A stretch of DNA of 64,000 nucleotides from IMG/VR virus record IMGVR_UViG_3300008954_000023, positions 1 to 64,000 of that record; one strand, 5' to 3'. Source of the DNA: a virus. The notes below the pieces were generated by a model, which was not told the DNA's origin, did no database searches, and saw only the letters and a list, made by a program, of their open reading frames with translations. The position numbers were made by a program, and so were the translations under genes. This document shows positions 13,596 to 46,607 of this stretch, in pieces (within the stretch, counting starts at the first letter, position 1; every line of letters begins with the position of its first letter).

Positions 13596-14095
13596 TGTCC
13601 GAGCTCTCAGAGCGGAAGAAGAGAGCCCTCAAGGAGTACGGAGAGTGGCGGCCGCGCATTGGCCGTGGTGCGTCTTGGGCTGCGACAGCAGGTCTGCTCA
13701 CGAATCTGTCAGGGAACAGGAAGGTGTCCATCCCTGCAGCGACCGCCGCCGGCGTGGCCGGTATGGGAGACAAGATGCTTGAGGAAGAGGTCAAGAAGAG
13801 TCGGAAGCTGAAGGCCATCGTGAAGGACAGCTTCGAGCAGTCCAAGACGGCTTCGAGCATCGCCAGCAGGCCGGCCTGGGCTCAGTCCCCTCTGGCGACA
13901 GAGCTCGGCAACGTCCAGCACAATGCCGTCATCGGTACCCTGTTCTCCCGCAAGGCTCGGGTCTCCGCAGCAGCTCGGAAGCAGCTCGGGAACCTCTTCG
14001 CCAATGCTGGTGAGAACTCCTTTGGAGCAAGTCTCCAGGTGAGTGCTGACCCGCGCTCTGCCGCCAAGGCGGTGGTTCGGGTCCTCAAGGGCTGA
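13595..14095 (+). CDS. Hypothetical protein, possible internal virion protein
   Basis: A 166-aa basic protein starting MSELSERKKRALKEYG. The ATG overlaps the upstream stop (TGATG), which is why it is preferred over an in-frame start 17 codons earlier. An Ala/Gly-rich weakly hydrophobic segment (SIPAATAAGVAGMGDKML) is followed by helices ending in VRVLKG. No enzymatic motif. It is coupled to the sigma-factor gene by another TGATG overlap. Confidence 0.6.
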   Translation: MSELSERKKRALKEYGEWRPRIGRGASWAATAGLLTNLSGNRKVSIPAATAAGVAGMGDKMLEEEVKKSRKLKAIVKDSFEQSKTASSIASRPAWAQSPLATELGNVQHNAVIGTLFSRKARVSAAARKQLGNLFANAGENSFGASLQVSADPRSAAKAVVRVLKG

Positions 14096-18449: not shown

Positions 18450-19097
18450 ATGGCCACGAAGGACTACCCGGTGCTGCAGTTCCAGGACGCGGCACTCGTG
18501 CGTCAGGTCCTTGTCTACTCCCGCTCGCCTTTGGTCCTCGACCTTCGAGGGCAGCACTTCATCGGTGTGTCAGAGGTCAGGATCAATGGCAGGCCTGTGC
18601 CGGAGTTCATGGTCCTCACCCCGTCTCGTATCCTCGCACCTGTCCCGACCAGGGTGGTGGGTACGCGTATCCGCTCTGTGAGAGTCATCCTCGCTCGTGA
18701 GGGCCTCACACAGACCACCAAGATTCGCTTCAGAGCGTCGGTCCCTGGAGGACGCGGCACAGGCTTCTCGAGGCTTCTGCAGTCGTTCCTTCGTCTCCTG
18801 TTTACAGCCCCGGGGGAGGACCTCGATGACTTCACTCGTGGTGGCGGTATGGGGAAGATTGTCGGTGCTGCGGGAGATCCCGGGGCGTTGAGGTCTGGAG
18901 TAGTTCGGTCTGTACGGGATACGGAGAGTCAGATGATCCGACTCCAGGCGGGGAATACCCGGCTTCAGGATTCAGAGAAGCTCCAGTCGGCTACGGTAGT
19001 CTCTGCCGAGTTCATTCCCTCCCTTGCAGCTGTCCATCTCCAGCTCCGCCTGACCGCGATGGATGGCTCCACTCATGACCCCGTGCTGAGCATCTGA
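18450..19097 (+). CDS. Baseplate protein, possibly IPT-like N-terminus
   Basis: A 215-aa protein immediately upstream of the J-like gene. Residues 30-75 (FIGVSEVRINGRPVPEFMV, then RILAPVPTRV) resemble an IPT/TIG beta domain. The central part contains FSRLLQSFLRLLFT, and the C-terminus ends in a beta-strand pattern (AAVHLQLRLTAMDGS) like that of small baseplate wedge proteins. Its ATG directly follows the previous stop. A wedge or hub role is inferred from position. Confidence 0.55.
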   Translation: MATKDYPVLQFQDAALVRQVLVYSRSPLVLDLRGQHFIGVSEVRINGRPVPEFMVLTPSRILAPVPTRVVGTRIRSVRVILAREGLTQTTKIRFRASVPGGRGTGFSRLLQSFLRLLFTAPGEDLDDFTRGGGMGKIVGAAGDPGALRSGVVRSVRDTESQMIRLQAGNTRLQDSEKLQSATVVSAEFIPSLAAVHLQLRLTAMDGSTHDPVLSI

Positions 19098-22000
19098 TGG
19101 CCAACACCGGTTCCCAGGCCGAAGCGATTCGAGACCTCCTGGTGGAGCGTCTGGAGCTCTTCGATCCCTCTCTGGACACCTCGGAAGGCTCTCCGCTGTG
19201 GACCAAGGTCGTTGCTCCGATCTACACGGCCTTGGGCACTGACCCCTTCGACACGAACATCCGTAGCTTCCTGAAGGACCGGCTCACGCAGGAGTACCCC
19301 TCCATGGCGGCCGAGGATGGGGACTCCCTCGTCGACCTCATGATCACGCCTCTTCAGTTCTTGCTGGAACCGCTGAAGCGCGAGACCCAGATCGTCCGTC
19401 GGGGCCAGTCCGTCCGCAACGCGGACACCATGCGACTCGAGGATGCCCGGGATCATGCCGGCAACTTCTTCACGGACTGGCACTCCGGAGATCGCTCGTC
19501 AGGAGTCGTGAGGGTCTACTATGCAAACCCGACCTTCGTGAATGTCCTGCCGACGATGACGTTCTCGACCGCAGGCGGTCTGAACTACTTCCCCACTTCC
19601 GCGCAGACCATCCGGCCAGAGACCATGCTCCTGCAGAGGTCCGGTACGGAGTACTACCTCGACATCTCGCTTGTAGCGGAGGACACAGGCTCCGAGTACG
19701 ACGCGGCGGCCGGAACCGTCATTTTGGTCAAAGGCCTGTCCGGCTACACCCGGATCACCAACCTCGAAGACTTCGACGGTGGAGACCCGGCAGAGACTGG
19801 CAAAGAGCTCCTCGATCGGACGAAGACCTCGCTGAGTGAGCGAAGCCTCAACGTCCGACGAGGTATCGTCTCTCGCATCAACAATGACTTCCCCTCCATC
19901 ATCGATGTGGAGGCCGTGGGGATGGGCGATCCGGAGATGGAGCGCGACATCATCACGGGCGGAGGCCATGGAACGGTCATCGCAACCGGCACCTGCTTCA
20001 TCGTGGGCCAGTTCTGCCTGATGTTCTCGATGTTCGAGAGGCGGGGTGAGCTCGAGGATCAGCAGATCGCCGAAGGCGATGAGATCGAGCTCAACTACTG
20101 GAAGTTCCTGTACGACTCCGATGGCTCCGACGCGAACGAGTCCTTCCTCGTAGACACCATCCTCTTCGACTCTCGTACGGCCATCCCCGAGATGCCGTCA
20201 ATCCTTTTGTTCCGTATCGATGGTGTTCCCTCACACACGACACCCATCGCCGGCACCCTTCCCGGGGTTCTGCCTTCGGTGTTCTGCGTGGTCCGGTCCA
20301 CAGGGAAGATCGAAATCTCGGACATCCCCGGAGGCATCACGGAGCCCAACACGGCCCGAGGTGTCATCGAGATCGAGGATGGAGAGGTTCATATCGGAGG
20401 TCACTACGACGTTTGGGCGCGGCCCAGCTCGACGACCAGTACGACCACAGATTTCGGAACCATCCGTTCGGCTACGGCGCACATGGAAGACGCCGATCTG
20501 GTCCTCAACGGAGAGAGCACAAGCCCCACACATCTCGTCCACCGCGCCTATACCCTCACCCTTGCATCTCCTGGGGACTTCCAGACGGGAGAGACCATCA
20601 CGGGAGGGACCTCCGGAGCCGTTGCAGTCATTGCCAAGAAGACCGCGACTACGGCAGTTCTGTGGGAGATGAACGGGATTGAGTTTGAGGTTGGGGAGAC
20701 TGTGACAGGTTCCGCCTCTGAGGCGACGTCTACCATCACAGAGATCGACAGCTTCGACTGGGACTCGGAAGGCGGTGTCACCAACCAGATGGTCCTGTCG
20801 GTGACTTCAGGGTCTGAAGCCGGAGTCTACAGCATCCTGAAGATTGAGGGCCCTTTCCTCTACATCGATGTGGCCCCGACCTCGACGCAGAGGGATCTCT
20901 TCTTCCGTGTCCTCTCCGAAATCTCTGTCGACCTGTTCAATCCTCGGTCCACGCTCATCCCCTTTGGAGATGCAGCAGGCAATGATCTGCGGACGACCAT
21001 CGGCTCTACAACTCTGCGGACGGCCATCAATCTGCAGGACTACGGCGTAGAGGCCGGAGACACCATCGAGATCCTGGACGGGGACGACAAGGGCACCTTC
21101 GTCATCAAGGACTTCGACTCGGCCATCGGCGGTACGGCACCCATCGTTGTCGGATCGGGCCTTTCAGCCACGAACTCTGGCCTGTCGTACACCGTCTACC
21201 GTTCTACTACGCCGCTCAACCGGCCCTTGGTCCGCATCTCTCCTGGAGCCGTGACGCTACTCGATCCTTCAGGCCAGGACTCAGGGTACAAGGTGCCCTA
21301 TGCCCTTCCAGTAGACTCGCGAGCGCAAGGTGCATTCTCCGGTTCGAAGGCGGTAGCTGCGGGACGGAATGGCTTCGTCTTGATGGATCCGGGCGACACC
21401 TGGGCTCCGACAGAAGACTTCAAGGTCGACATCACGACGTTCGACTACGAGGCCGCCACAGGCGTCTCGGGTGAGACCTTCGAGGACTTCTACAGCGAGG
21501 AGAACTTCCGTCGCTGCTACACCGACGAGTGCCTCCCTTGTGACGGGTACATCGCCGTCATCTCCGTCTACAACGATGGGAAGATGTACCTCGATGCCAA
21601 CCTCCCTTCGGCAGTCACAGACTTCCTTCAGAGCATGAAGGATTGGTTCCTCTCCGTCATTGAGACCTTCAACTTCGGTGGTGACGAGGAAGAGCTCATC
21701 GAGGGCTTCTCTCCGATCAAGCTCGAGGCTCCGGACGAGGCTCTCTCCCTGCTCTTCCAGTTCGAGATCTGCATTCCGTTTGCAGTCTTCGACGGCTGCA
21801 ACAATGTCTTCATGGCTGTGCCGGAGTTCGACTGGGAAGCGGAGTTCGAAGACCTGGGTACCTTCGAAGAGGCCATCTCCCTCTACAACGCAGGCCTGAT
21901 GACAGGCCCGACCCCGGCCCTCCTCTCTGCCGCTGCAGGGGACGTGCTGACGGTACTCTCAGGGCCCAATGCCGGCTCGTACCTTATCGACTCCGTTCAC

Positions 22001-25000
22001 ACGTTCTACCTGGCCACCTCTGGCGATATCGAAGGCTCAGACTTCGACCTCAACAACGCCTACAAGGTAGGCCTGGTCGTCATCAAGGGTGAGTTCCCTG
22101 TCCCGGCCCTTCAAGGTCTGCCGGAGTACTTCGAGGGGACTGCTCCATCCTGGTCAGTGCCTACTCCTCCTGATCTGCGTGACCAGTTCACAGTGGAGGA
22201 CGAGAGTGGTGAGATCGTCGGATGGGCGTATGTCGAGAAGGCCCTGGCCTGGTTCTTCCAGTGGATGACGTCCCTGGGCTTCGATCTGCCTGAAGGCGTG
22301 ACCCTGGACACACCAGCTACGCTCAAGGCCTTCTGGCAGCTCCTTTTCTCCGACTACATCGTGGCGAAGCCGACCTGCGCGCAGACCGCCCGCATGCAGT
22401 TCATCTCGCCAACCTCGTGTACGGTGTACTCTCCGCAGCCCTGCACTCGGTACCAGTACGCCCTTCCTGTCCCGACTGGAGTAGCTGTCACGGGCGAGAG
22501 CATTACTCTGCCGCTACCGGATCTTGAAGGGAAGACGGTCTCTCTGACAGTGAAGCGACTTAGCGGGGACACAGACCTCTCAGCCACGCTCGAGGAAGCG
22601 GCTGGTACGGCCAGTACCATTTCCGAGCTTGCGGCGGAGCTTCAGTCGGCCCTGGACTCGAACAGCGAGTATGTGCTCTTCTCTGGTCCTGAGACGGCCA
22701 CCGGACAGCTCACTATCACCCAGGCGACAGGCGGGGTGGATGAGTGGCTGTACGTGGGCTCCACGTCTTCAGACCATGTCTTCCGGTGGCTCGGCTTCTT
22801 CGATGAGGAAGAGGGGAAATACGCCTATACCTCCGCAGTAGGAGCCGTGACGCCTTCGGCAGAGACCATCGACACGGACGCTGTAACGGCCCTCGGTTTC
22901 CTACTGAACAATCTCACGACGTCCTTGAACCGAATCACGTTCACACAGTCAGGTGCGGTCGATATGCAGATCGGCGAGATTGTGGAGGGAGATACCTCGG
23001 GCGCTCAGGGTGTGGTTTACGCCATTCTCCACGACACCTCAGGCGGTGTGTCTTCGTACATCCTCGTCGGCAACATCACAGGCGGAGCATTTCAGACGGG
23101 AGAGGCTCTGACGGGTCAGACTTCCTCTGATGAGATCACAGTGGTGAATGTCTCTCCTGACGTCATACTCGATGTAGAGCATGTCGTTGAGGAGGACCTT
23201 TCAGCCAAGCAGTCCAGCTTCGTTGAAGCTGCCGAGATCCTCTCCACGGCTCTTCGGCGGGAAATCATCGTAGAGATGCACAACGACGTAGCCTCCTCCA
23301 ACTTCGATGATCAGCGGATTGCGACTACATTCGTAGCGACTGTGACCTGGACTGAGAATGGAGATGGGACAGGGTACTTCGGGGTTACCATCGAGGATTC
23401 TGTCGATGAGTCTATCTTCACCGGTTTCACCGTAGATGATACGGGCGATGTCGCCGTCAAGGACATGGCAGGAGACTACTTCTTGTCTACGACGGGAGTT
23501 CCTCACTCTATCGTGGGCCATGTACTGACCGGGGACGACTACGACTACGACAGTCAGTCCATGACTATCGACATCGACAAAGACGGTGGTGACGTCGCAG
23601 ACATCGACTTTGCTTTGGACGGTGAGTCCGCCGTCGCCTTCAGAGACGACATTCAGAGCCTCTTGACCGCTGCCGACTACGACGGCGCAGCACAGGCCCT
23701 GAATGCAACGGAGGCGTACTACGCAGACACTACGTCCTCGGAGCGTGCCGTAGTGTGGGTAGGAGGAGGAAGCCTCACGCTTCGTTCTCTCTCGGGAGGA
23801 AGTGCCACAAGCATGACGTTGGTAGGAGCTGACATCGTCGGACTCTCTGACGTGACGGCTACAGGCTCCAATGTCGATGGTAACTCCATCGTGCAAGGCA
23901 CTACGGTTCCTGACGAGACCGTCACAACCTATGCCACACCTCCGGAGCCGACGCTCTTCGTGGCCGCTGCTGGGGCTGCTGAGCTTCTCTTCACAGTGTC
24001 GCCAGAGGAAGACGCCTTCCAGGTGTTCCCCGGCCAGACAGAGGACGGCAACGTCCCTGTCACAGAGCTGCCGCGCGACATCCGCATTGGCACTCCGTAC
24101 GACGACCAAATCACTACAGAGCTGGCCTTTGACGATGCTGCCTACGGAGCTCCTGTAGAGCTTGGCATCACAGATGGCCTCGATGTTCTCCACCTCCATG
24201 AGCACAGGACGCTCCTGGAGCACATCATCGAGGAGGCAGACGCGGCCATCTCGCGGGATCGAGTCGTTGCGGTGGCTACTACCTTTGGCTCGACGACCAT
24301 CGAGCTTCTCGACTTCGACTCCCCAGAGTACACCTTCCTTGCACCGAACTCTGGACTGGACTCTGATGAGATTCAGGTCGGTGACATCGTGTTCATCGAA
24401 GAAGGCGAGGACAAGGCGGGGTACACCGTCACGGCCCGGACTGCGACGTCTCTCACGCTCGATACGTCGCTGTCGCTGTCCACGGCGAAGATCTACAAGT
24501 TCGGCAACGACGGTGTGATTGAGCCGGATGAGTCTGACGCCCTCTTCACCTCGATCACCGGTTCCTTCACCTCCGACGACATCGGGCGGTACCTGACGAT
24601 CTTCTCCAGCAACAGGGAGGAGTACGACGGGAGCTACAAGATCACGGCGGTAGAGGCGGACGGCTCTGGCTGCACCCTCGATACGGATGTCTTCCTGTTT
24701 ACGGAGACTGACATTCACTGGGCAGTGGTTCAGGCCCCGACCGAGGATCTCGCGGACTCCAGTATTGGAGGCCGAACTGCGCTTCACGGCGTGAGGCCGA
24801 TTCGCATCTATGCGGGGACAGCCTCAGAGTGGCGGGTTGCTCGAGTCACTCCGGACCTTGATCGAGCCTTGACCAGGGTGTTCGTCGCACACGGATCGAG
24901 TGCATCTCCTCCGGAGCAAGGTGTGAAGCAGCCCTACCGGTTCGTCCGAGAGGGTACGCATCGCATTTCGTCTACGAGGATGTCGGAGCAGAGGGACAAG

Positions 25001-25738
25001 GAGTACTACTACTTCGACGTTCTCGCGCAGTCCTTGGGCGGTGACGCTCTCTACAACGTGGAGAAGTACACGAAGCTCGAGCCGGTCTTCGGCACCTTCG
25101 ACTCCGATGGCTTCCGTCTGGAGACAGACGATCCCCGTCTGACCTTCTCGCCACGAGAGGAGACCAGCATGGTCCTCTCTCCCTCGTTCCTCCCTGTAGG
25201 CTTCGATGATCACCCCGTGAACCATGTCGATCTGGAAGGCAGGGCTCTGCGAGTCGGGTACGAGCATGCGCCTACGCTGGGACAGATCCAGCGACTGCTT
25301 TCCTCAGAGACGGACCGGGTACTCTGCGCCAATACGCTCGTCCGGCACTTCCTGCCGTCCTTCGTGAGTCTGGACCTGACCTACGACGGAGGCAACACTG
25401 CCTCGAAGATCGCCGGTGAGCTCAAGGCATACATCGACAGCCTCTCCTCTACCGACGAGATCGACGTCTCGAAGCTCGAGAAGATCTTCCACGCCAATGC
25501 GGTGTCCCGCTACGACCACCCCTTCGTCGTTCGCTCCGTCACCCATGACCTCGACAGGCGGCTTGTGGGTAGTCGTTCCGAGAACCGGCTCACGGATGAC
25601 GACATCGAGTACAACGGAACCAACAGGACTACGTTCTTCATCGCCGGAAGCGACCACTCCTCCGTAGAGGAGGCAGATCTTCCCGAAGGTGAGCGCATCC
25701 GTCTGACGCGAGGAGTCGTCCCGACTACCGTGAGATGA
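19097..25738 (+). CDS. Baseplate J-like (wedge) protein, very large
   Basis: A 2213-aa acidic protein. The N-terminal 300 residues show the J-like pattern: GSPLWTKVVAPIYTALG, then FLKDRLTQEYP, then ELLDRTKTSLSERSLNVR and INNDFPSIIDVEAVG, as in gp6-like wedge proteins of contractile tails. The remainder is an expansion of beta-rich inserts, including at least three GD modules (near residues 650, 945 and 1759) and two pairs of F-x-x-GE modules (near 494/530 and 1290/1331). A cysteine cluster (CYTDECLPCDGY) lies near residue 810. J-like proteins are usually a few hundred residues, so this is unusually long. It forms the baseplate ring that triggers contraction. Confidence 0.78.
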   Translation: MANTGSQAEAIRDLLVERLELFDPSLDTSEGSPLWTKVVAPIYTALGTDPFDTNIRSFLKDRLTQEYPSMAAEDGDSLVDLMITPLQFLLEPLKRETQIVRRGQSVRNADTMRLEDARDHAGNFFTDWHSGDRSSGVVRVYYANPTFVNVLPTMTFSTAGGLNYFPTSAQTIRPETMLLQRSGTEYYLDISLVAEDTGSEYDAAAGTVILVKGLSGYTRITNLEDFDGGDPAETGKELLDRTKTSLSERSLNVRRGIVSRINNDFPSIIDVEAVGMGDPEMERDIITGGGHGTVIATGTCFIVGQFCLMFSMFERRGELEDQQIAEGDEIELNYWKFLYDSDGSDANESFLVDTILFDSRTAIPEMPSILLFRIDGVPSHTTPIAGTLPGVLPSVFCVVRSTGKIEISDIPGGITEPNTARGVIEIEDGEVHIGGHYDVWARPSSTTSTTTDFGTIRSATAHMEDADLVLNGESTSPTHLVHRAYTLTLASPGDFQTGETITGGTSGAVAVIAKKTATTAVLWEMNGIEFEVGETVTGSASEATSTITEIDSFDWDSEGGVTNQMVLSVTSGSEAGVYSILKIEGPFLYIDVAPTSTQRDLFFRVLSEISVDLFNPRSTLIPFGDAAGNDLRTTIGSTTLRTAINLQDYGVEAGDTIEILDGDDKGTFVIKDFDSAIGGTAPIVVGSGLSATNSGLSYTVYRSTTPLNRPLVRISPGAVTLLDPSGQDSGYKVPYALPVDSRAQGAFSGSKAVAAGRNGFVLMDPGDTWAPTEDFKVDITTFDYEAATGVSGETFEDFYSEENFRRCYTDECLPCDGYIAVISVYNDGKMYLDANLPSAVTDFLQSMKDWFLSVIETFNFGGDEEELIEGFSPIKLEAPDEALSLLFQFEICIPFAVFDGCNNVFMAVPEFDWEAEFEDLGTFEEAISLYNAGLMTGPTPALLSAAAGDVLTVLSGPNAGSYLIDSVHTFYLATSGDIEGSDFDLNNAYKVGLVVIKGEFPVPALQGLPEYFEGTAPSWSVPTPPDLRDQFTVEDESGEIVGWAYVEKALAWFFQWMTSLGFDLPEGVTLDTPATLKAFWQLLFSDYIVAKPTCAQTARMQFISPTSCTVYSPQPCTRYQYALPVPTGVAVTGESITLPLPDLEGKTVSLTVKRLSGDTDLSATLEEAAGTASTISELAAELQSALDSNSEYVLFSGPETATGQLTITQATGGVDEWLYVGSTSSDHVFRWLGFFDEEEGKYAYTSAVGAVTPSAETIDTDAVTALGFLLNNLTTSLNRITFTQSGAVDMQIGEIVEGDTSGAQGVVYAILHDTSGGVSSYILVGNITGGAFQTGEALTGQTSSDEITVVNVSPDVILDVEHVVEEDLSAKQSSFVEAAEILSTALRREIIVEMHNDVASSNFDDQRIATTFVATVTWTENGDGTGYFGVTIEDSVDESIFTGFTVDDTGDVAVKDMAGDYFLSTTGVPHSIVGHVLTGDDYDYDSQSMTIDIDKDGGDVADIDFALDGESAVAFRDDIQSLLTAADYDGAAQALNATEAYYADTTSSERAVVWVGGGSLTLRSLSGGSATSMTLVGADIVGLSDVTATGSNVDGNSIVQGTTVPDETVTTYATPPEPTLFVAAAGAAELLFTVSPEEDAFQVFPGQTEDGNVPVTELPRDIRIGTPYDDQITTELAFDDAAYGAPVELGITDGLDVLHLHEHRTLLEHIIEEADAAISRDRVVAVATTFGSTTIELLDFDSPEYTFLAPNSGLDSDEIQVGDIVFIEEGEDKAGYTVTARTATSLTLDTSLSLSTAKIYKFGNDGVIEPDESDALFTSITGSFTSDDIGRYLTIFSSNREEYDGSYKITAVEADGSGCTLDTDVFLFTETDIHWAVVQAPTEDLADSSIGGRTALHGVRPIRIYAGTASEWRVARVTPDLDRALTRVFVAHGSSASPPEQGVKQPYRFVREGTHRISSTRMSEQRDKEYYYFDVLAQSLGGDALYNVEKYTKLEPVFGTFDSDGFRLETDDPRLTFSPREETSMVLSPSFLPVGFDDHPVNHVDLEGRALRVGYEHAPTLGQIQRLLSSETDRVLCANTLVRHFLPSFVSLDLTYDGGNTASKIAGELKAYIDSLSSTDEIDVSKLEKIFHANAVSRYDHPFVVRSVTHDLDRRLVGSRSENRLTDDDIEYNGTNRTTFFIAGSDHSSVEEADLPEGERIRLTRGVVPTTVR

Positions 25739-25970
25739 CCCCATGCTCGGGGCATACCGCATCGTAGTTGAAGGACGTGCCGCGGAAGATGCGGGCCGGA
25801 TCACGAGGCAGGCGTGGCACCAGGCTCTCGCCGCACTCAGGACAGGTCATCGAGGCGATGTCTTCTCGCTTGTCCGTGTCCTTCTCCTGCATCTGAGGGA
25901 TGACAGATTCCCGGCCGGATAGGATGCTAAGAACGGCATCCTGATCCATCTCCTGGTAAGGCTTCGACAT
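25725..25970 (-). CDS. Antisense zinc-ribbon protein
   Basis: An 81-aa protein read against the tail block, starting MSKPYQEMDQDAVLSI. It fills the only gap over 200 bases in the plus block. It has a zinc-binding pattern: CPECGESL at about residues 44-51 and CPEHG near the C-terminus. Its 3' end overlaps the J-like gene by 14 bases. Its ATG and the ATG of the next plus gene share the same CATG tetranucleotide on opposite strands. No strong ribosome binding site is visible. If real, it needs its own promoter inside the following tail gene. Confidence 0.5.
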   Translation of the reverse strand: MSKPYQEMDQDAVLSILSGRESVIPQMQEKDTDKREDIASMTCPECGESLVPRLPRDPARIFRGTSFNYDAVCPEHGVISR

Positions 25971-28236
25971 GGCAAACCCCGTAGTCGTGAATCGCCGCCC
26001 AGCCCCTGGAGAGGCTGATGTGTCCATCGAGACCCCGTTCCGTTTCGGGGTCCGGGACCTGGATACCAGGGTATCCCTTTCCACCATCTACGCCTCCATC
26101 TCCTTTGGTCGGTCGGTCTATGTGCCTACCGAGAGTACCCTGCCTTCGCAGGACGACACGCTGAAGGAAGAGGGCGTGGATGTGTACCTGTCCACGTTCG
26201 ACGATGCCTCCGGCACGACACACGCTGAAGACGACTCGCAGCAGACGTCTGTGGCAGGGATCTACACCATCACCAAGGACACCTCCGGTCCGGAGAACGG
26301 TGTTCTCTTCCTCACGTTGCCGGCACAGGCCTCACAGAAGCCCTACGAGTTCCAGGCGGCTCTGGACCTCTCAAACGTCTCCACAGGCACCAAGGACTAC
26401 ACCGACTTCTCGGACTACGCGGGGGTCGTCCTTGGTATCGCCTACTGGCCCGAGAACACCGGTGTCTTCCTGTTCTTCAGGGGTGATGGTCTCGCAGGAG
26501 GTACCGGAAGTGTGACCGTGGCCGGGCCTTCGGATGATGGAACAGGCACCCGCCCTATGGCTCAGACGACGGCTCTGGAGTGGAAGGAAGACTCCTACAC
26601 CTTCACCATCAACGTCGACCCTTCTCCACAGAGGAGGAAGGTGCTGGTCTTCGCCACAGACTCCAACGGCGACGAGACCTCATTGGCGGAGTTCGAACTC
26701 AACGACTTCAACGAGTTCCTCCCTTCGGTTCGCATGGGAACACTTCTGGCTGAGGACGAGCCCACAGACAAGGTCACGTTCATCGCGGGACTCGATGGCT
26801 TCGTTGCCGGGGAGTACATCGACGTCTACAGCCTGGCCATGCTCGCCAACGGCCATGTGCTCGTAGTGGATGGGCTTCACACAGGGTCTTCCACTCTCAA
26901 GGTTGACCCGACCGAGTCTCAGCTCATTGTTGGTCCAGAAGGGGCCGGTGAGTGGATTGAAGAAGGCGACGACGGGTCATCGCAGACTACGGAGTTCGCT
27001 CTCCAGATCACGGCATCCTCTGGCCCGTATCGCTTCCACCGGGACGAGCCTGACCTCGGGGACAAGGAGTGGATGATTCTCGGCCGCTTCGCCGGCGATG
27101 AGTCCGTCCATGAGGGCATCTACCACACAGGTATGGGCATCACGGTCTCCGACGGTACCTCTGCCTTCAAGCTCCACCTGCTCGATGACTTCTCTCGTCG
27201 AACCATTGGCATCTCTCTGCCTGGTGCCGCAGACGACACAGTCATCGAAGACTACAAGCTCCCTGAAGAAAATGTGGAGTGGGATGGGACGGAGGTGGAC
27301 TTCATCCTCCTTGGCTCCGGCACGAAGAACCTCCTACGGCTCTACACCTCCGACACCGATTTGGTCATCGACCATATCTACGCGGATAGTTACCCGCTTG
27401 AGCCCTCGACAGAGGTAGCTTTTGGCTTCACCGAGGATGGGGAGTTTTCGGGGGAGTTCCATCTCTACAGGCTCTGGCTTTTTACGAACTGCACGTTCTA
27501 TGAGCCGACGGTCACGCCGTACCCTCCGACTGCGCAAGGCTGGGGAAAGGTCTCGAACGGCCTGGCAGAGGTCTTCGACGGCACTACTCTTGAGGTGGAT
27601 GCTACCGCCTCAGGAGCCTACGGTATCTACCACATCGACGAAGCAGACCATGATGAGACCTCCGGTGCTGCTCTCTTCTTTCGGATGGAGCTGGAGTCTT
27701 GGAGGGACTCCGCCGGAGCTGTGAAGCCGACAAGGAAGGAGTTCGGTCCTGTAGCCGCGATCAGGACCTCATCCCTTGCGACCCAGCTTCACTTCGTGCA
27801 GACCGTGGATGGGGTGTTTTACGCCTACTTCTCCAACGACACTTCCGACGTCACAGAGGTTCTCAAGCAGTCGGACGAGGGTCGGCTCATCTCGGCCGAG
27901 GTGGATCTCTCCGAGGCTCGGACTTTCCTCCTCGATGTGAAGCCGCGGCAGTGGATCCGACTGTACGTCGACAACGACACCACTCCCGTCATTGAAATCG
28001 ACTGGGACTCAGAGCATGAAGGCGCGCTTCGAAGTCTGCCCACGAACATGCCAGTAGATGCGGTCGTGGCCTTCGGCTCTCTTGGAGAGGATTCAGGGGT
28101 GAAGGCCAAGTACAGCTTCGCCCGAGCATCTCTCGGTCGGGGATATGACCTGACCACATCTCCTGTCATCTCAGACTCGGAGCCACTGTACGGCGCTCAG
28201 GTTAGTCTGCTCATCGATGTGCAGGACGAGGATTAG
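25969..28236 (+). CDS. Tail protein with LamG/concanavalin-like regions
   Basis: A 755-aa acidic, beta-rich protein beginning MANPVVVNRRPAPGEADVS. The opening has the form of a fibronectin/Ig linker (PAPGEADVSIETPFRFGV) seen at the start of many phage surface proteins. Two or three later stretches have concanavalin-like jelly-roll character (EWMILGRFAGDESVHEGIY; ALFFRMELESWRDS, then VFYAYFSNDTSD). These folds often bind glycans, so receptor or surface binding is likely. It sits between the J-like protein and the zincin-like gene. No catalytic motif seen. Confidence 0.6.
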   Translation: MANPVVVNRRPAPGEADVSIETPFRFGVRDLDTRVSLSTIYASISFGRSVYVPTESTLPSQDDTLKEEGVDVYLSTFDDASGTTHAEDDSQQTSVAGIYTITKDTSGPENGVLFLTLPAQASQKPYEFQAALDLSNVSTGTKDYTDFSDYAGVVLGIAYWPENTGVFLFFRGDGLAGGTGSVTVAGPSDDGTGTRPMAQTTALEWKEDSYTFTINVDPSPQRRKVLVFATDSNGDETSLAEFELNDFNEFLPSVRMGTLLAEDEPTDKVTFIAGLDGFVAGEYIDVYSLAMLANGHVLVVDGLHTGSSTLKVDPTESQLIVGPEGAGEWIEEGDDGSSQTTEFALQITASSGPYRFHRDEPDLGDKEWMILGRFAGDESVHEGIYHTGMGITVSDGTSAFKLHLLDDFSRRTIGISLPGAADDTVIEDYKLPEENVEWDGTEVDFILLGSGTKNLLRLYTSDTDLVIDHIYADSYPLEPSTEVAFGFTEDGEFSGEFHLYRLWLFTNCTFYEPTVTPYPPTAQGWGKVSNGLAEVFDGTTLEVDATASGAYGIYHIDEADHDETSGAALFFRMELESWRDSAGAVKPTRKEFGPVAAIRTSSLATQLHFVQTVDGVFYAYFSNDTSDVTEVLKQSDEGRLISAEVDLSEARTFLLDVKPRQWIRLYVDNDTTPVIEIDWDSEHEGALRSLPTNMPVDAVVAFGSLGEDSGVKAKYSFARASLGRGYDLTTSPVISDSEPLYGAQVSLLIDVQDED

Positions 28237-28237
28237 G

Positions 28238-28981
28238 ATGGACTCTCAGACCTTCTCGAAGTTCGCAGCCAATATGCGTGCCAACATCTCGTCTGAAGCT
28301 CTTGGTATTGGCGCTCTCAGTGCTGTGAGCGGTGTAGGAGCTGTCTATGACACCTACAAAGCTCGTGGCCTGTCTTCGGATATGAAAGAGCTTCAGGCAG
28401 CTCTCAAAGGTGAAAGCGGGCATGAGATGGTCAACCTTCGGGCCTACCTGAAGAAGCGAGACCCTGCCGTGACGGTGGTGGACACGCCGAAGAAGGTGGA
28501 TGCCTTCCTCGAGCGGGAAGGTATCCGCGGGTTCAAGAAGCTCATGAACCGCGCAGCCCTACGGAGCATGGTTGAGCAGGGGAGCAACGCTGCTGCTTAT
28601 CGGGGACAGCACGGAGAGTACATCTTCGGCCGTGGCAAGCTGCCGAAGGCTGTGGCTGACCATGAGCATGGTCATATCCTCGACTTCCGGGCCAAAGGCA
28701 TCAAGCTCGATGGCTCCCCTCGTATGGGCGAGTACGTCAAGGGTTACATCGACAGCTTCATCCAGTCCAAGTCCAAGGACCGGTTCATGAAGGGCCGCTA
28801 CAAGGCCGAGACGGAGGCTTGGAGGCATGCGGCTGTAAAGGGGAAGAAGAACAAGGACTTGGAGGACAAGGCCTTGGGCTCCTACGAGAAGGGTTTCCAT
28901 GTGCAGCGCGGCATAAGTCGAGGAGCTACCGGCCTGATCGCTCTTCAGAGCCTTGCCAACACTACTCGTTTGCGTCGGTAA
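28238..28981 (+). CDS. Putative zincin-type metalloprotease
   Basis: A 247-aa protein starting MDSQTFSKFAANMRANI, two bases after the previous stop. Residues 142-146 are HEHGH within VADHEHGHILDF, a match to the zinc-protease signature HExxH; ETEAW at 191-195 is a candidate for the third zinc ligand (E191 or E193). The N-terminal part has a weak hydrophobic helix (IGALSAVSGVGAVYDTY). It could process virion proteins, act on the host envelope during ejection, or be injected. The HExxH motif is short and can occur by chance, but the hydrophobic context and downstream Glu favour a real site. Confidence 0.6.
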   Translation: MDSQTFSKFAANMRANISSEALGIGALSAVSGVGAVYDTYKARGLSSDMKELQAALKGESGHEMVNLRAYLKKRDPAVTVVDTPKKVDAFLEREGIRGFKKLMNRAALRSMVEQGSNAAAYRGQHGEYIFGRGKLPKAVADHEHGHILDFRAKGIKLDGSPRMGEYVKGYIDSFIQSKSKDRFMKGRYKAETEAWRHAAVKGKKNKDLEDKALGSYEKGFHVQRGISRGATGLIALQSLANTTRLRR

Positions 28982-29637
28982 TGAAGTCTCTCCTCAAGAT
29001 GGCCGGGCATGTAGAGAACCGTGCCCGTGAGCGTACCGACATCTCTCATGCTGAGATCGCCGCTCTGCGGCAACATTTACAGGGCCTGAAGCTCCGGCCG
29101 GGAAAGACCTATCACCACACCTGGCCAGGCCGAGGCCATGCCATCATCGGCTCCGTAGGACCAAAGAAGCGGCACGTCGTGAAGACCATCCTCGGTCCCG
29201 ACATGCCTCCAAGGATGCACAGCCGGCCCTTGCCGGGCATGGTTACTCCGAAGGACATCCATCGTCTGGCTGATCACGTAGGCGTCAAGTGGGATAATGA
29301 GCCCTCGTTCTTGGCTCTCAGCAAGAAGGTGACTGGTGTATCGCATCTCGATCACATGAACCCGACCCAGCTCCGGGCCATGAGGGATGAGCTGCAGAAG
29401 CTGGGTGACCGGAAGTTGGAGCCAGGCTCTGATGCTCACATCAGGAATCTGGCGATGGGCCGGGGTATCGGTGCTGGCGGTTTGACCTTCATGGCGGCAG
29501 CTCCTGTTGCCGGTCTGGTTTCTGGAGCGACAGGGAAGAAGGGCCTTCTTGCCGCCCCTGCGGTAGCAGGGCTGGCGACAGGTGAGATCGCTCGGCGACG
29601 ACACCTGAAGCGCCTGAGGAAGTACCACAACAAGTGA
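28981..29637 (+). CDS. Basic protein with C-terminal hydrophobic segment
   Basis: A 218-aa His-rich basic protein beginning MKSLLKMAGHVENRARER. The ATG overlaps the TAA of the zincin-like gene (TAATG), so the two are translationally coupled. Residues about 160-205 are a Gly/Ala-rich hydrophobic stretch (LTFMAAAPVAGLVSGATG, then LLAAPAVAGLATG) that could span a membrane as a hairpin, followed by a basic tail (RRRHLKRLRKYHNK). Possible roles are a pilot protein or a partner of the protease. Confidence 0.6.
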   Translation: MKSLLKMAGHVENRARERTDISHAEIAALRQHLQGLKLRPGKTYHHTWPGRGHAIIGSVGPKKRHVVKTILGPDMPPRMHSRPLPGMVTPKDIHRLADHVGVKWDNEPSFLALSKKVTGVSHLDHMNPTQLRAMRDELQKLGDRKLEPGSDAHIRNLAMGRGIGAGGLTFMAAAPVAGLVSGATGKKGLLAAPAVAGLATGEIARRRHLKRLRKYHNK

Positions 29638-29651
29638 GATAGTAGAGGGGC

Positions 29652-32600
29652 ATGCCTTCCCGCTCGCTCCAGCTCCATGGCTTCACGGTAGAGCCCTCTC
29701 GCTCTACCCCTGTGGCTGTTCTGTCCCCAGGCACCCTCTCGAAGGTCGTAGGGGCTGTCATCCAGCTGGATGGTCGTGGGTCGTACGACCCTGATGGCTC
29801 CGATCTGACATACACCTGGAGCTTCGAAGAGACTCCTCTCGGCTCTACGACGGATACGTTCCTGGAGACCGAGACCGACGGCTCTGTGGTCACTTTTGTC
29901 CCTGACATAGTAGGTCGCTACATCGTCGGCCTGAAGGTCTCGACTCCGTACCGTACCAGCGAGATGGTGCTGGCCACTGTCGATCTGACGCCCATCAACA
30001 CTCCGTTCCTCCTCCGGACCACTCCGGACGGGGACATCATGTTTCGCCTCATCTCTTCCTTCTGGCAGATGGTCGAGGAGAAGGCGGCCTTTAGTGCTTT
30101 GTGGTCTGGCTACATGCAGATCGCGGCCGCAGAGCTCCTTCGACTCTTCCAGGTCGACTACGCGAAGTCCATCAGGAACATCCAGCCGATGTTCCAACGA
30201 CGATGGATCGCCTACGAGCCTACGCTCAAGCTGGACCCTGCCCTCCATACTGGCGTCTTCGGGCACCACCAAAGCGGAAGCTCCGCCTTTACCGCAGCCG
30301 GAGCCGCCTCCGTCGTCGGCATCATCATCTCCGATCAGGAGATCCTCCTCCGTGACGGCTCCCCTTCCTTGGATGCCGTAGGCACAGAGCTGACCATCTA
30401 CTCCTCGGGTGGAGACCCAGGGAACATCGGCGACTACACCATTAATCGTATCAACAACGATACGACAGGGTACATCGTCTCGGCCTCTACACCCTTCCCT
30501 TCCCCGGAAGAGGAGGTGCTGACCACTGGTACGGACCTCGTGACCTTCCAGCTCGAGGATGAGGTCTACGTCGCTGACACAGGCGTTGACTTCTCCGCCC
30601 TGGAAGTGCAGAAGGGCGACATCCTCAAGATCTCGCAGGGGTACTTCAAGATCACGGGAGTAGGAACGGCCGATGGCCTTCTCAATGAGAGGACACTGAA
30701 GCTCGAGTCCTCTCCCTCCAAGACAGGTTCCGGCAACAGCTACATCATCTTCAAGGCCTTGCGGATTCTGGCTCGCAGGTCGGCGAAGCCCACCACGAAC
30801 ACTGTCTTCATTCCTGAGGATGAGGCAGATCTCTCCCTGTTCTCCTCCTCGGAGTTTTCCGGTACAGGCACAGTTCAAGGCACGCTCGAAATCAGAGTCG
30901 AGAGCCGGCACATCTTCCCGTCACTTGTCGGCCAGGCCATCACCATCACGTCTGGTGACGATGCTGGAACGACGTACACCATCGCCAGTCTGAACGAGGC
31001 ACAGAACGGCTACTACGTCAGCACCGAGTTCTCGACGACGGAGTTCCCCCAGACAGTCACGTACACCATCCCCCTGGTCTCGGACATCTCCAGCCGACTT
31101 CTCATCCTGGATGGCCGAGCCTACGAAATCACAGCCGCATACCTCGATGAGACTGGTATCTCCGTAGAGGATGGAGGCTTTGGACCGGTATGGGTCATCA
31201 CTCTCAAGGAAACAGCCGCACCTTCAAGCCGTGAAGGCATGGGATGGCGCATTCCTGCCGTCATCGAGTCTTCAGAGCATGAAGACCTGGAGGCAGAAGG
31301 TGTTTCCGCTGGAGACCTTCTGGTCTTGGACGTCCGTCGGGAGGACAACAGCACTATTGGCCGGCTGAAGTGCCTCGTTCTCGGCGCTGCAGGGACCAAG
31401 ATCGCCTTTGACCTTGGGCTGTCATCGTTGGATGCTGGAGAGAATGGGGCCATCCCAAACTCCGAGCTCCTGGAGCTCTCCGAAGCTCTTCGCGTTGCAT
31501 CTGTGGTCGTAGACGAGTTCGACGAGGGTGAGCTGGTCATCGCGCTGATGGCGGCTGAGATCGAGTCGTACTTGCAGAGTAGGGAGTTCCAGTCCTCGAT
31601 CTACAACCTCCCTCTCAACCCGTCTTCCTCGGTGAGTGTGGGACCTTTCACGGTCCGGTTCCGTGTCCGTCACATCATAAGGAACTGCCGTATTCCGGTA
31701 GATCCTTCTCTGTCTTCAGTCCCGGTCCTCATTGAGTACATCGACGAGCCTGTGGTCGGAGAGGATGAAGATGGACAGATCATCCATGTTGCGAAGGATG
31801 GTACGCAGACCGTCCTTGACCGTGAGCCGTTGGAGCTGATCGAGAACCGTGACTTCACAGTTGCGGCCGATGAGAACCTTACTGGGACGAACCTGGAGAC
31901 TACGGCAGACTCGGGACTTCTCACCATCCCTGGCGGGGATCTCATCGATAGGGATGTTCGTGTTGGTGACTTCATCGACATCAAGTCGGGCTTCGATCAG
32001 AGGCGGTACATCATCCTGTCGGTGGTGGACTCAGAGACAATAGACGCCATCTCCGAGGACCGTGAGGTCCCGGGCACGACGGCCACAGGCCTGAGCTACA
32101 CCCTCGTCCGCCGGACCCCGGGGAACTTCGTCCGCTTCGTGTCCGGGATGTTCACAGCAGCTCTCCCAGCTCCGGAGCGACTGTGGGCGCAGGTCAGCTT
32201 GTACGACAACTCTGAGCTCATCGAAGACAACTTCGGTGTCATGGTCGGGGTGACTCGAGAGCAGCTCGACGAGTACGGAAGTAGTCAGATCTCGTACAAG
32301 GGTGCTGTGACCGGCCTCATGTACGCCTGGACCAGTGGACCTACGGTTCGCAACGTGTCCATCGGTAGTCACATCCTGGTTGGTCTTCCTGTGACAGAGG
32401 TGGCAGGCCAGATCGTACAGATCGATGACACCTACGACACGGAGAACGGTGTTGGTCGGGTGCTGATCGAAGATCATGATCCACAGGGCAACAGCACTGG
32501 CCTGGTCAGGATTTACTACTACAACACCGCCGATGACGACACACTCAACGAGTTCGCCGGCCTGGCCACGAACCCGCTGACGGGCGCGACATACGACATC

Positions 32601-34421
32601 CTCGACATCGTTTCGGCCTTTGCTCCTTTGTCGAAGGGGGTGGTGGTTGCCGACTACCTGACGGAGCCGAAGTGGTGGGCCACGAACAGTACAGGAGCCT
32701 CAGAGCTTCGGAAGTACCACACCTGGCAGGTCCGACTCGATGCGGCACAGGTGGACTCCCGAGACATCCCTCTCATCCATGACTTCGTTTTCGGGATTCG
32801 GCCCATCTACACAGAGCCGGAAGTCGTTCTCGTCTTGTACCTGACGGATGACATCACCATCGAAGATGAGCTCGGTCTCGAAGGAGACCTTCTCCTCGCT
32901 GATGACATCGGGCAGTCCATCGAAGCTACGAGGATGACGGACTCCTACAATGGGAGCTCACTCACTCACCGTCTGTTCGACCACCCGTCCCTCAACACAC
33001 GGACCTTCTTCGAAGGCCGGGACCTGGTCACGACGGAGGGCTCTTCGACGGTGACTTCCGTTCGGGGAGGCTTCACCACGGATGGCACGCTCTCGGGAAT
33101 CAATGAGTGGTTCGAGGATGACGTCGAAGTCCGTGGTCCCGCTATCGTGCGGGTGGGAGACATCCTCTTCATCCGTGAGGGCGTGAACCGTGGCCGGTAC
33201 CGAGTCACGGCTGTGACCGACGACAACACTCTGGAGATTGAGCAGCTCACAGGCTGGCCGCCGAGGTCGATCCCTACGGATCAGATCGCTGCCCTGACAG
33301 GGCAGGTCTTCCAGCTTCAGCGACAGGATACTGAGGACCTGGTCTCTGTGTCTGACGTGACGGTGGTGTCCTACGACGCGGCCACCGATACGACCCAGAT
33401 CACGAGTCCGACGGCGAACTTCCGCTGGAACGGCTGTGCGGTCAACGACACCCTCGTAGTCGAGGATGGCGCAGACTACGGCCTCCATGAGGTTTTGCAG
33501 GTCGGGTACATCGACGGCTTCGGCGACCTGCAGAGTTTGGATACCATTCTTACCATTGATGGCGAGCTCACCGAGGCTGGGAGCTTCTCCATCACTGTCC
33601 GTCGAGATCGTCTCCGGACAAATCCTCTTGTTTCCCGTACTGATGGAATCACAACGGCGGCCTCTTCGTCCGTCGCACTGCCGTCAGGTGCGCTGTTGCT
33701 GGGACTGCAGTACGGGGATCTTCTCACGCCGCAGACCGGTGCCGATGCTGGCAAGGTCTTCAAGGTCATCGACGTTCCAGATGACACAACCATCTTCACG
33801 GACCAGGACTTCTCTGCCACGGAAGTCTCAGTTGAGTTCGAGGTCACACGCCCCTCACTCTTCGATGACTCTGGCACCTCGGACTCGGACGAGGAGCTCA
33901 CGCCCTTCGCTCCAGAGGACAAGGTCACCTTCACAGTCCTGGAGCCTCTGACCCAGCTCCTGGCCCTCACAGACCTGACCTTGACAGGAAACACCGCAGA
34001 GTCTCAGGCCACTGTCCTGCAGGGGACCGTGTCTGCTGGAGACAAGCTCACTGTCCCGTTCACCTCTGAGAACTCGGGAGTCTTCGAAGTCACGGACGTC
34101 TCGGGCAACATCGCGACAGTGGAGCACTCATGGCACACCGATGAGGGCCCATTCTCGGCCTCAGGCATCTTCCACACACTCGCAGCAGACTGGGAGGTCC
34201 ACGGCATCATTGTGACCCTGGTGGGAGCTACAGCTGCCGCTATGACAGGGGCCGGGCTCACCCTCTTCGACTTCGCGAAGCCAGGGGATGTGCTCGAAGT
34301 CGATGGTGTGGGTACACTGGTGATCGCCGAGGTGACCTCGAACTTCGTCCTGACGTTCACGAAGCAGAGCGGAGTGAACCCGGCGACCAACTATACTGGT
34401 AGGCTGAAGCGGGAGGCGTGA
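29652..34421 (+). CDS. Large baseplate/tail protein with PKD-like N-terminus and repeated GD modules
   Basis: A 1589-aa acidic protein. Residues about 20-115 resemble a PKD domain (IQLDGRGSYDPDGSDLTYTW). They are followed by a helical stretch with a tail-protein-I-like look (FWQMVEEKAAFSALW, then RNIQPMFQRRWIAYEP). The rest is built from a recurring beta module with the core V-x-x-GD-x-L-x-I-x-x-G, near residues 318, 551, 770, 1166, 1261, 1351, 1460 and 1541. Similar modules occur in the J-like protein. The likely location is the baseplate periphery linking to fibres. No catalytic residues recognised. Confidence 0.65.
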   Translation: MPSRSLQLHGFTVEPSRSTPVAVLSPGTLSKVVGAVIQLDGRGSYDPDGSDLTYTWSFEETPLGSTTDTFLETETDGSVVTFVPDIVGRYIVGLKVSTPYRTSEMVLATVDLTPINTPFLLRTTPDGDIMFRLISSFWQMVEEKAAFSALWSGYMQIAAAELLRLFQVDYAKSIRNIQPMFQRRWIAYEPTLKLDPALHTGVFGHHQSGSSAFTAAGAASVVGIIISDQEILLRDGSPSLDAVGTELTIYSSGGDPGNIGDYTINRINNDTTGYIVSASTPFPSPEEEVLTTGTDLVTFQLEDEVYVADTGVDFSALEVQKGDILKISQGYFKITGVGTADGLLNERTLKLESSPSKTGSGNSYIIFKALRILARRSAKPTTNTVFIPEDEADLSLFSSSEFSGTGTVQGTLEIRVESRHIFPSLVGQAITITSGDDAGTTYTIASLNEAQNGYYVSTEFSTTEFPQTVTYTIPLVSDISSRLLILDGRAYEITAAYLDETGISVEDGGFGPVWVITLKETAAPSSREGMGWRIPAVIESSEHEDLEAEGVSAGDLLVLDVRREDNSTIGRLKCLVLGAAGTKIAFDLGLSSLDAGENGAIPNSELLELSEALRVASVVVDEFDEGELVIALMAAEIESYLQSREFQSSIYNLPLNPSSSVSVGPFTVRFRVRHIIRNCRIPVDPSLSSVPVLIEYIDEPVVGEDEDGQIIHVAKDGTQTVLDREPLELIENRDFTVAADENLTGTNLETTADSGLLTIPGGDLIDRDVRVGDFIDIKSGFDQRRYIILSVVDSETIDAISEDREVPGTTATGLSYTLVRRTPGNFVRFVSGMFTAALPAPERLWAQVSLYDNSELIEDNFGVMVGVTREQLDEYGSSQISYKGAVTGLMYAWTSGPTVRNVSIGSHILVGLPVTEVAGQIVQIDDTYDTENGVGRVLIEDHDPQGNSTGLVRIYYYNTADDDTLNEFAGLATNPLTGATYDILDIVSAFAPLSKGVVVADYLTEPKWWATNSTGASELRKYHTWQVRLDAAQVDSRDIPLIHDFVFGIRPIYTEPEVVLVLYLTDDITIEDELGLEGDLLLADDIGQSIEATRMTDSYNGSSLTHRLFDHPSLNTRTFFEGRDLVTTEGSSTVTSVRGGFTTDGTLSGINEWFEDDVEVRGPAIVRVGDILFIREGVNRGRYRVTAVTDDNTLEIEQLTGWPPRSIPTDQIAALTGQVFQLQRQDTEDLVSVSDVTVVSYDAATDTTQITSPTANFRWNGCAVNDTLVVEDGADYGLHEVLQVGYIDGFGDLQSLDTILTIDGELTEAGSFSITVRRDRLRTNPLVSRTDGITTAASSSVALPSGALLLGLQYGDLLTPQTGADAGKVFKVIDVPDDTTIFTDQDFSATEVSVEFEVTRPSLFDDSGTSDSDEELTPFAPEDKVTFTVLEPLTQLLALTDLTLTGNTAESQATVLQGTVSAGDKLTVPFTSENSGVFEVTDVSGNIATVEHSWHTDEGPFSASGIFHTLAADWEVHGIIVTLVGATAAAMTGAGLTLFDFAKPGDVLEVDGVGTLVIAEVTSNFVLTFTKQSGVNPATNYTGRLKREA

Positions 34422-46319: not shown

Positions 46320-46607
46320 TCAGCTCCCGTCGGGAATGATGATTGTGCGAAGTTCCTCGCGGAACTTCCGCGATGTCCTGGCCGACACTCTGATCGTCGG
46401 CACACCTTGTTCGCTTGTGGTCGGTGTCCGAGCCCGCAAGACATGCGGGGTGAGGTGCAGGAACCCTGTGATCCTAACCTCTCCTTGGCCTCGGATCTCT
46501 TCCTTCATCACCTCTACGGCCTTGTTCCAAACGAGCCGGACGACTCGTTCGGGAAGGCCTGTCTTCCGGCTCACCTTCTTGATGATCCGGCTCGAGGTGA
46601 GGATCAC
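46320..46607 (-). CDS. HU/IHF-like DNA-binding protein
   Basis: A 95-aa protein starting at GTG overlapping the polymerase stop (GTGA). It follows the HU/IHF pattern: two N-terminal helices (IIKKVSRKTGLPERVVRLV), a helix (AVEVMKEEIRG), strands GEVRITGFLHLTPH, then an arm with ARTPTTSEQGVPTIRVSA and a final helix (SRKFREELRTI). HU-like proteins bend DNA and compact it, and help replication and recombination complexes. The GF following the beta-strand is typical of the family. No unusual features. Confidence 0.68.
   Translation of the reverse strand: MILTSSRIIKKVSRKTGLPERVVRLVWNKAVEVMKEEIRGQGEVRITGFLHLTPHVLRARTPTTSEQGVPTIRVSARTSRKFREELRTIIIPDGS

What the first reader, a model, noticed from the sequence alone, without database searches (positions are those of the whole stretch)
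28661..28823. HExxH zincin-like protein inside the tail gene block
HEHGH with a hydrophobic flank and a downstream ETEAW Glu gives a plausible metalloprotease in the tail operon, coupled to a small protein with a membrane-hairpin-like end. It could mature virion proteins or act on host envelope proteins at infection. I know no standard phage tail gene of this description.
Basis: partly seen in the sequence, partly recalled or inferred. Interest (0 to 1): 0.52.

Follow-up and report, generated by a model that had tools for sequence, protein, structure and literature searches.

The report
Phage late-gene zinc protease relative
A small protein encoded among the tail-fibre genes of a large environmental phage looks like a zinc-dependent protease distantly related to a bacterial membrane protease, and similar genes recur, mostly unnamed, in many large phages, where they may be carried in the virus particle and act when a cell is infected.

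Summary
The 247-aa protein at 28238-28981 (P0001) has HEHGH and a downstream E-T-E-A-W. Two relatives, found by whole-sequence similarity in other phages of the same portal clade (29% and 28% identical), keep H142, E143, G145, H146, E191, A194 and W195. A 12-sequence AlphaFold2 model predicts a zincin core: helix, three strands, HExxH helix, Glu helix. Profile comparison links the P0001 family to a larger phage family of YugP-like (Pfam Zn_peptidase_2) metallopeptidases, found at 37 loci in one viral-contig scan. Both types can occupy the same gene slot near spike and terminase genes. P0001 alone shows no significant similarity to any library, lacks the hydrophobic hairpin of several YugP-like proteins, and has no confident fold match, so I call it a diverged relative, not a member. 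Most likely it is a solo gluzincin-type protease made late and carried or used with the virion, like the zincin domains of injected 'polyvalent' phage proteins. Virion location, substrate and activity are inferred. A short N-terminal tag on several family members and on other effector-type phage proteins is the most interesting lead.

The parts
28238..28981 (+). P0001: predicted gluzincin-type metalloprotease, 247 aa
   Evidence: family; model
28661..28675 (+). HEHGH active-site motif (H142, E143, H146)
   Evidence: invariant in 3 of 3 P0001-type members and 12 of 12 rows (the other 9 rows were chosen by HExGH or by profile)
28808..28822 (+). E191-T-E-A-W195: predicted third zinc ligand (E191) and flanking conserved A194, W195
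28286..28342 (+). weakly hydrophobic N-terminal segment, residues 17-35
   Evidence: mean hydropathy 1.26; low-confidence helix in the model
28981..29637 (+). gene B, 218 aa, overlapping start; ~75-aa domain shared with helicase/HNH-type proteins plus a C-terminal hydrophobic hairpin
25969..28236 (+). upstream 755-aa protein (fibre-like by position; no Pfam match)
29652..34421 (+). downstream 1589-aa protein with a weak PKD-like N-terminal match (fibre-like by position)
19097..25738 (+). 2213-aa baseplate protein, N-terminal region similar to Arash gp13 and to phage G gp188 (baseplate wedge)
61761..63815 (+). portal protein used to place the phage in its clade

Best explanation
P0001 is a solo zinc metalloprotease of the gluzincin kind. 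H142 and H146 on one helix and E191 on a later helix hold Zn2+, and E143 activates water. It is a diverged relative of a phage family of YugP-like (Zn_peptidase_2) membrane metallopeptidases. It is made late, with its start next to the stop of a virion fibre-like gene, and most likely travels in or on the particle and acts at a membrane at the start of infection, on an injected phage protein or a host protein, as proposed for the zincin domains of 'polyvalent' injected phage proteins. Shown here: the conserved motif set, the predicted fold, the profile link, and shared gene slots in relatives. Inferred: zinc binding, catalysis, virion location, membrane contact, time of action, substrate.
For: Two relatives found by whole-sequence similarity keep the putative zinc ligands and general base. 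The model with 12 sequences has mean pLDDT 64 and pTM 0.65, with residues 51-160 at 70-93 in ten-residue means and the Glu helix at about 70-78, and the order helix, 3 strands, HExxH helix (137-153), Glu helix (177-197); this fits the MPTase core described in PMC5512222 (passages). hhalign of the P0001 family against the YugP-like phage protein L314: probability 94.9, score 57.4 over 89 columns, against maxima of 24.9 in 600 random ORFs and 36.1 in 100 shuffles that kept HELGHA. Against 30 YugP-like proteins: probability 94.7 over 119 columns. L314 exceeds the Pfam cut-off for PF04298 (28.5 vs 27 bits), and 10 of 30 YugP-like proteins match PF04298 at E<=0.05. P0001-like L276:1413-2144 and YugP-like L272/L278 lie in the same slot before spike-p676-preTerL-TerL; P0001-like L237 and YugP-like L245, L249, L321, L345 lie upstream of TerL. 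Three of 30 YugP-like proteins also carry the InPase domain, which PMC5512222 describes as mainly in phage polyvalent proteins likely packaged in virions.
Against: P0001 alone scores nothing against the YugP-like profile (probability 0.6, score 15.6); the link runs through its two relatives and L314, and against the 34-sequence profile it covers only 24 columns. Another zincin, in a 1274-aa protein (L094), scores 47.0, so the YugP branch is not singled out. The single-sequence model failed (pLDDT 36); the better model used rows aligned to YugP-like proteins, so it is not independent. Foldseek found nothing at E<=0.001 in PDB or viral models and the best VIA Z is 4.1. No Arash or D69 homologue was found, so no proteomics supports virion location. 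P0001 has at most a degenerate form of the N-terminal tag, and sits in a different slot from its relatives.
Confidence: 0.55

Rival explanations
1. Virion maturation protease: P0001 cleaves phage structural or ejected proteins during assembly, before the particle leaves the cell.
For: Late structural-gene position. PMC7824862 (passages) proposes such a role for a conserved zincin-like peptidase of group 1 jumbo phages. PMC5512222 discusses autoprocessing by MPTase domains.
Against: Patchy presence (3 P0001-type records; the YugP-like type also patchy; many records are fragments) is unlike an essential maturation protease; relatives occupy several gene positions.
Confidence: 0.2
2. Late membrane protease acting inside the infected cell (lysis, membrane-protein turnover), not carried in the particle.
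For: YugP is a putative membrane-associated metalloprotease of the B. subtilis inner spore membrane (PMC13393411 passages). The two P0001-type relatives have hydrophobic N- and C-terminal segments.
Against: P0001 itself is only weakly hydrophobic; tight packing between fibre-like genes; InPase-fused relatives point to packaged effectors.
Confidence: 0.13
3. A zincin-fold protein that has lost protease activity and serves as a structural or membrane-contact part of the tail.
For: Activity is untested; the other 11 rows are only 13-27% identical to P0001, so little outside the motifs is held.
Against: Ligands and general base are intact in 3 of 3 P0001-type members.
Confidence: 0.08
4. HEHGH is a chance motif in an unrelated fold.
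For: HExxH arises in about 1% of shuffles; weak structure matches.
Against: Conservation with E191 in relatives found without using the motif; 0 of 20,000 shuffles with both motifs.
Confidence: 0.04

Closest known systems
YugP / Pfam PF04298 Zn_peptidase_2
   Same: HExGH, later invariant Glu followed by A at +3, [ST]Y further on; intermediate phage proteins match PF04298 and the P0001 family profile
   Different: P0001 itself has no PF04298 match; no hydrophobic hairpin between HExxH and Glu; it has HEHGH and ETEAW where most relatives have HE[LI]GHA and E..AS
Zincin-like MPTase domains of polyvalent proteins (Iyer et al. 2017, PMC5512222; Pfam PF18818)
   Same: predicted core of helix, three strands, HExxH helix, Glu helix with a variable insert; likely delivery with phage DNA
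   Different: P0001 is a solo 247-aa protein, not multidomain; no PF18818 match
HExxH (C1) domain of the coliphage N4 virion RNA polymerase (PMC12633501)
   Same: HExxH domain in a phage protein ejected into the host; relatives of the window phage encode their own multisubunit RNA polymerase near this family
   Different: no sequence comparison made; P0001 is not fused to a polymerase
Peptidase M48 / BlaR1 (M56) and ACE-type gluzincins
   Same: top VIA alignment is BlaR1 (Z 4.1, rmsd 5.6, 142 aligned); one P0001-type relative has a sub-threshold M48 match (E 0.32)
   Different: all below the level at which a fold match means kinship

Membership tests
Zincin (gluzincin-type) metallopeptidases | HExxH zinc motif, conserved among relatives | tested here: met
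   (3 of 3 P0001-type members, found without using the motif)
Zincin (gluzincin-type) metallopeptidases | third ligand Glu on a following helix | tested here: met
   E191 invariant in 12 of 12 rows; helix 177-197 in the model. Zinc contact itself not measured
Zincin (gluzincin-type) metallopeptidases | zincin core fold | tested here: inconclusive
   order of elements fits, but the model depends on the alignment; no confident match
Zincin (gluzincin-type) metallopeptidases | binds zinc and cleaves peptide bonds | not testable with these tools
   needs biochemistry
Pfam PF04298 Zn_peptidase_2 (YugP) | match to the family model above its cut-off | tested here: not met
   no PF04298 match for P0001, nor for L090 or L091, nor anywhere in G000
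Pfam PF04298 Zn_peptidase_2 (YugP) | hydrophobic hairpin between HExxH and the Glu (seen in several phage YugP-like members, e.g. L314) | tested here: not met
   no 19-residue stretch with mean hydropathy of 1.0 or more there in P0001
Pfam PF04298 Zn_peptidase_2 (YugP) | homology through intermediates | tested here: inconclusive
   94-95% probability for the family profile with controls, but 0.6% for P0001 alone
Polyvalent-protein MPTase (PF18818) | match to the family model | tested here: not met
   none for P0001; L314 only E 0.063
Polyvalent-protein MPTase (PF18818) | fusion to other effector domains | tested here: not met
   P0001 is a 247-aa protein without another domain match; fusions are seen only in YugP-like relatives
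Virion protein | present in purified particles | not testable with these tools
   no homologue found in Arash, whose record names many 'structural proteins'

The most novel reading that the evidence does not exclude
Large phages of this portal clade carry a set of separate early-action enzymes (YugP-like proteases, InPase, Nudix, SNF2-type helicases, a papain-like amidase), several of them marked by a short N-terminal tag (consensus AFxDEFxKxA) that sends them into the virion for ejection, a modular counterpart of multidomain polyvalent proteins; P0001 is the protease of its phage's set, with a worn-down tag.
Probability: 0.22. Interest if true: 0.75.

Novelty: new variant of a known kind. Interest (0 to 1): 0.47.

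Why it matters
If right, a widespread but unnamed phage protease family is now definable (HExGH ... P.L..E..A[SW] ... [ST]Y) and its members can be tested for packaging, ejection and substrates. The tag, if it works like the N-terminal capsid-targeting sequences known for T4 internal proteins and P1 DarB (PMC3012670, PMC9024508), would allow ejected effectors of large phages to be listed from sequence and offers a handle for cargo loading. By itself P0001 is a sound but modest annotation gain.

Tried and rejected
Rejected: a direct family name for P0001. Pfam, PHROGs, NCBIfam, PDB sequences and 50,697 phage records gave nothing meaningful. The early hit L002 does not follow the reading frame of the long gene there and is treated as chance. 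The G020 match (E 0.003) falls to E 0.07 and was dropped. The genome-contig scans gave no confirmed relatives. Re-scanning with L091 first added nothing. In the VIA list, 24 of 49 rows are by title BlaR1, ACE/ACE2, anthrax lethal factor or fungal M36 entries; that these are gluzincins is recalled, one of them (1pwv) aligns outside the catalytic domain (recalled), and all Z values are low, so this is only weak support. A reading of gene B as a protease inhibitor or chaperone was considered and has no evidence.

Rows dropped before counts: identical and near-duplicate (over 85% identity) sequences (42 to 37 to 34). Two of the 37 loci (L353, L355) gave no ORF and do not enter later counts. Of the 43 tagged genes, 31 chosen by hand, plus the G045 helicase, make the 32 proteins scanned. 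The YugP-like set was picked by HExGH and partly by a P.L..E..A pattern, so its conservation of those residues is not independent.

Full report
What is there. The window is part of a 94,150-base virus record. Its portal (61761-63815) is about 32% identical to that of Salmonella phage Arash and Vibrio phage D69 and 20% to that of Bacillus phage G, and 80 portal relatives were fetched from viral contigs. Genes on the + strand from 5383 to about 40.8 kb follow the Arash order of large structural protein, hydrolase, sigma factor and baseplate protein; that the window's own ORF at 14095 is a sigma factor rests on position and reading, since Pfam gave no match. Between two fibre-like genes lies P0001 (28238-28981), followed by gene B (28981-29637) with overlapping stop and start.

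The motif is real and conserved. P0001 alone matches nothing useful in Pfam, PHROGs, NCBIfam or PDB sequences, and tblastn finds no relative in 50,697 phage records. Searching 50 records that carry related portals found two homologues, in G039 (243 aa, E 1.8e-7) and G032 (223 aa, E 3.5e-4). The three-row alignment has 26 invariant columns, among them H142, E143, G145, H146, I147, E191, A194, W195, S215, Y216, H221 and R224. A profile of the three found, besides its own rows and a dropped match in G020, only one further match worth keeping, L314 in G116 (1 of 50 records), and none in 29 other records.

A larger family around it. ORF scans of the same phages turned up small proteins with HE[LI]GHA, a hydrophobic stretch, then P.L..E..A[SW] and later [ST]Y. 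L314 exceeds the Pfam cut-off for Zn_peptidase_2 (28.5 vs 27 bits), and L116 matches it at E 3.3e-5, below the cut-off. A scan with three of them found 37 loci in viral contigs. In a 30-row alignment H, E, G, H, E and A are invariant (selection by HExGH and partly by the second motif makes this partly circular), and 10 of 30 match PF04298 at E<=0.05, best 2.5e-8. PF04298 rang in 3 of 43 clade records, 1 above the cut-off, and not in the window's record.

Is P0001 part of it? hhalign of the P0001 family against L314 gives probability 94.9 and score 57.4 over 89 columns. Controls: 600 random ORFs reach at most 24.9; 100 full shuffles 20.6; 100 shuffles that keep HELGHA in place 36.1. But a zincin in an unrelated 1274-aa protein (L094) reaches 47.0, over 19 columns, and the other eight YugP-like proteins taken singly score only 26-34, within the range of the motif-keeping shuffles. 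Against 34 YugP-like sequences the score is 51.9 over 24 columns, against at most 36.9 in 60 column-shuffled controls; P0001 without its two relatives scores 15.6. Against the 30-row alignment the match runs over 119 columns from the N-terminus (probability 94.7). I read this as probable homology, not proof.

Gene position agrees. In G039 the P0001-type gene (L276:1413-2144) lies before spike, p676, preTerL and TerL at about 4.1, 6.0, 8.4 and 9.8 kb. In L272 and L278 a YugP-like gene lies at 0.5-2.4 kb with the same genes at about 4.0, 6.1, 8.5 and 9.8 kb. In G032 (L237) the P0001-type gene is directly upstream of TerL, as are, at various distances, the YugP-like genes of L245, L249, L321 and L345. 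Anchors of this kind were found in 13 of the 43 loci scanned; the other 30 showed none of the probe genes within the DNA held. In the window phage the gene sits elsewhere, among fibre-like genes.

Structure. Folding P0001 alone failed (pLDDT 36). With 12 aligned sequences mean pLDDT is 64 and pTM 0.65; ten-residue means are 70-93 for residues 51-160, 56-57 for 161-180, 70-78 for 181-210, and below 50 for 1-45 and 218-247. The elements are helix 98-114, strands 119-122, 127-130 and 134-136, helix 137-153 with HEHGH, helix 161-175, and helix 177-197 with E191. PMC5512222 (abstract and passages read) describes the polyvalent-protein MPTase core as a three-stranded sheet with one N-terminal and two C-terminal helices, HExxH in the first and a Glu in the second. 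Foldseek found no match at E<=0.001 in PDB (best 1.3) or in viral models (best 0.23; a Marseillevirus M48 peptidase at 0.78 and a PolyVal metallopeptidase at 1.1). VIA's best row is BlaR1, Z 4.1, too low to rely on. A profile search of PDB sequences with the YugP-like alignment lists IrrE proteins first (E 0.01 and 0.05); with the 12-row alignment nothing is below E 0.06.

What it probably does. Late gene position between fibre-like genes suggests a virion or assembly role. Three of 30 YugP-like proteins carry the InPase domain, which PMC5512222 describes as mainly in phage polyvalent proteins likely packaged into the virion. By reading, L343 carries a SWIM-like zinc motif and a papain-like stretch, and L331 a P-loop kinase-like stretch (not tested). 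N4's ejected virion RNA polymerase has an HExxH domain (PMC12633501, abstract and passages). YugP of B. subtilis is a putative metalloprotease of the inner spore membrane (PMC13393411, passages). Solo zincins with patchy distribution in jumbo phages were proposed to target host proteins, and a conserved one to act in maturation (PMC7824862, passages). I therefore favour action at infection over maturation, at 0.55 for the whole explanation; the identity as a zincin I would put near 0.85.

The tag. The regex [FY].{2,3}[GEDKQ][FILMY].[KR].A occurs in the first 40 residues of 43 of 2,773 greedily chosen genes in 19 phage sets, in 10 mid-protein windows and in 5 shuffled N-termini. By offset it is 15.5 per thousand in the first 40 residues and 0-5.8 per thousand in later windows. 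A looser regex used first gave a smaller contrast and caught little in Arash or D69. Some hits look like chance or wrong frames. In 32 tagged proteins the consensus is AFxDEFxKxA, and the Pfam matches include InPase in 4, SNF2/helicase in 2, NUDIX in 1 and a papain-like amidase in 1; one further tagged protein matches PHROG 'minor head protein and DNA pilot'. Among 37 distinct P0001-type and YugP-like proteins 9 have the strict tag and 14 a looser one; P0001 has neither. N-terminal capsid-targeting sequences are established for T4 internal proteins (PMC3012670, passages) and P1 DarB, whose first 30 residues send a reporter into the capsid (PMC9024508, passages). Whether this tag does the same is untested.

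Verdict. It is a diverged relative of a recurrent phage YugP-like family, a new variant of a known kind. Literature searched for the family; no paper naming a phage YugP-like family appeared in those listings.

Noticed in passing
L090:1402-1470, L116:8141-8215, and N-termini in L136, L143, L150, L161, L225, L227 and others: Short N-terminal tag (AFxDEFxKxA-like) on unrelated proteins of these phages, including YugP-like proteases, InPase, Nudix and helicase proteins; enriched only in the first 40 residues (43 of 2,773 genes).
   Followed up: partly
L092:4292-6199: A second protein next to the G039 P0001-type gene has HHEGFH followed by SSEILAHAYGG, another zincin-like motif pair.
   Followed up: no
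window 28981-29637: Gene B shares a ~75-aa domain (GHV..R..ER ... GKTYH ... RGyAVIG ... HVVKT) with L223, L227 and L109 proteins; in L109 and L223, by reading, it sits beside SWIM- and HNH-like stretches, and the L109 protein has helicase matches.
   Followed up: partly
window 52369-55038 (-): DnaB-like helicase interrupted by an intein with a LAGLIDADG endonuclease.
   Followed up: partly
window 46604-50011 (-): Family A DNA polymerase split in two ORFs, with a weak LAGLIDADG endonuclease match in an ORF (47701-48375) overlapping the second part in another frame; no Rfam match in the window.
   Followed up: partly
L324, L325, L330, L331, L343: YugP-like domain fused to InPase (three of 30 scanned) and, by reading, to P-loop, SWIM and papain-like stretches, i.e. 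polyvalent-type architectures.
   Followed up: partly
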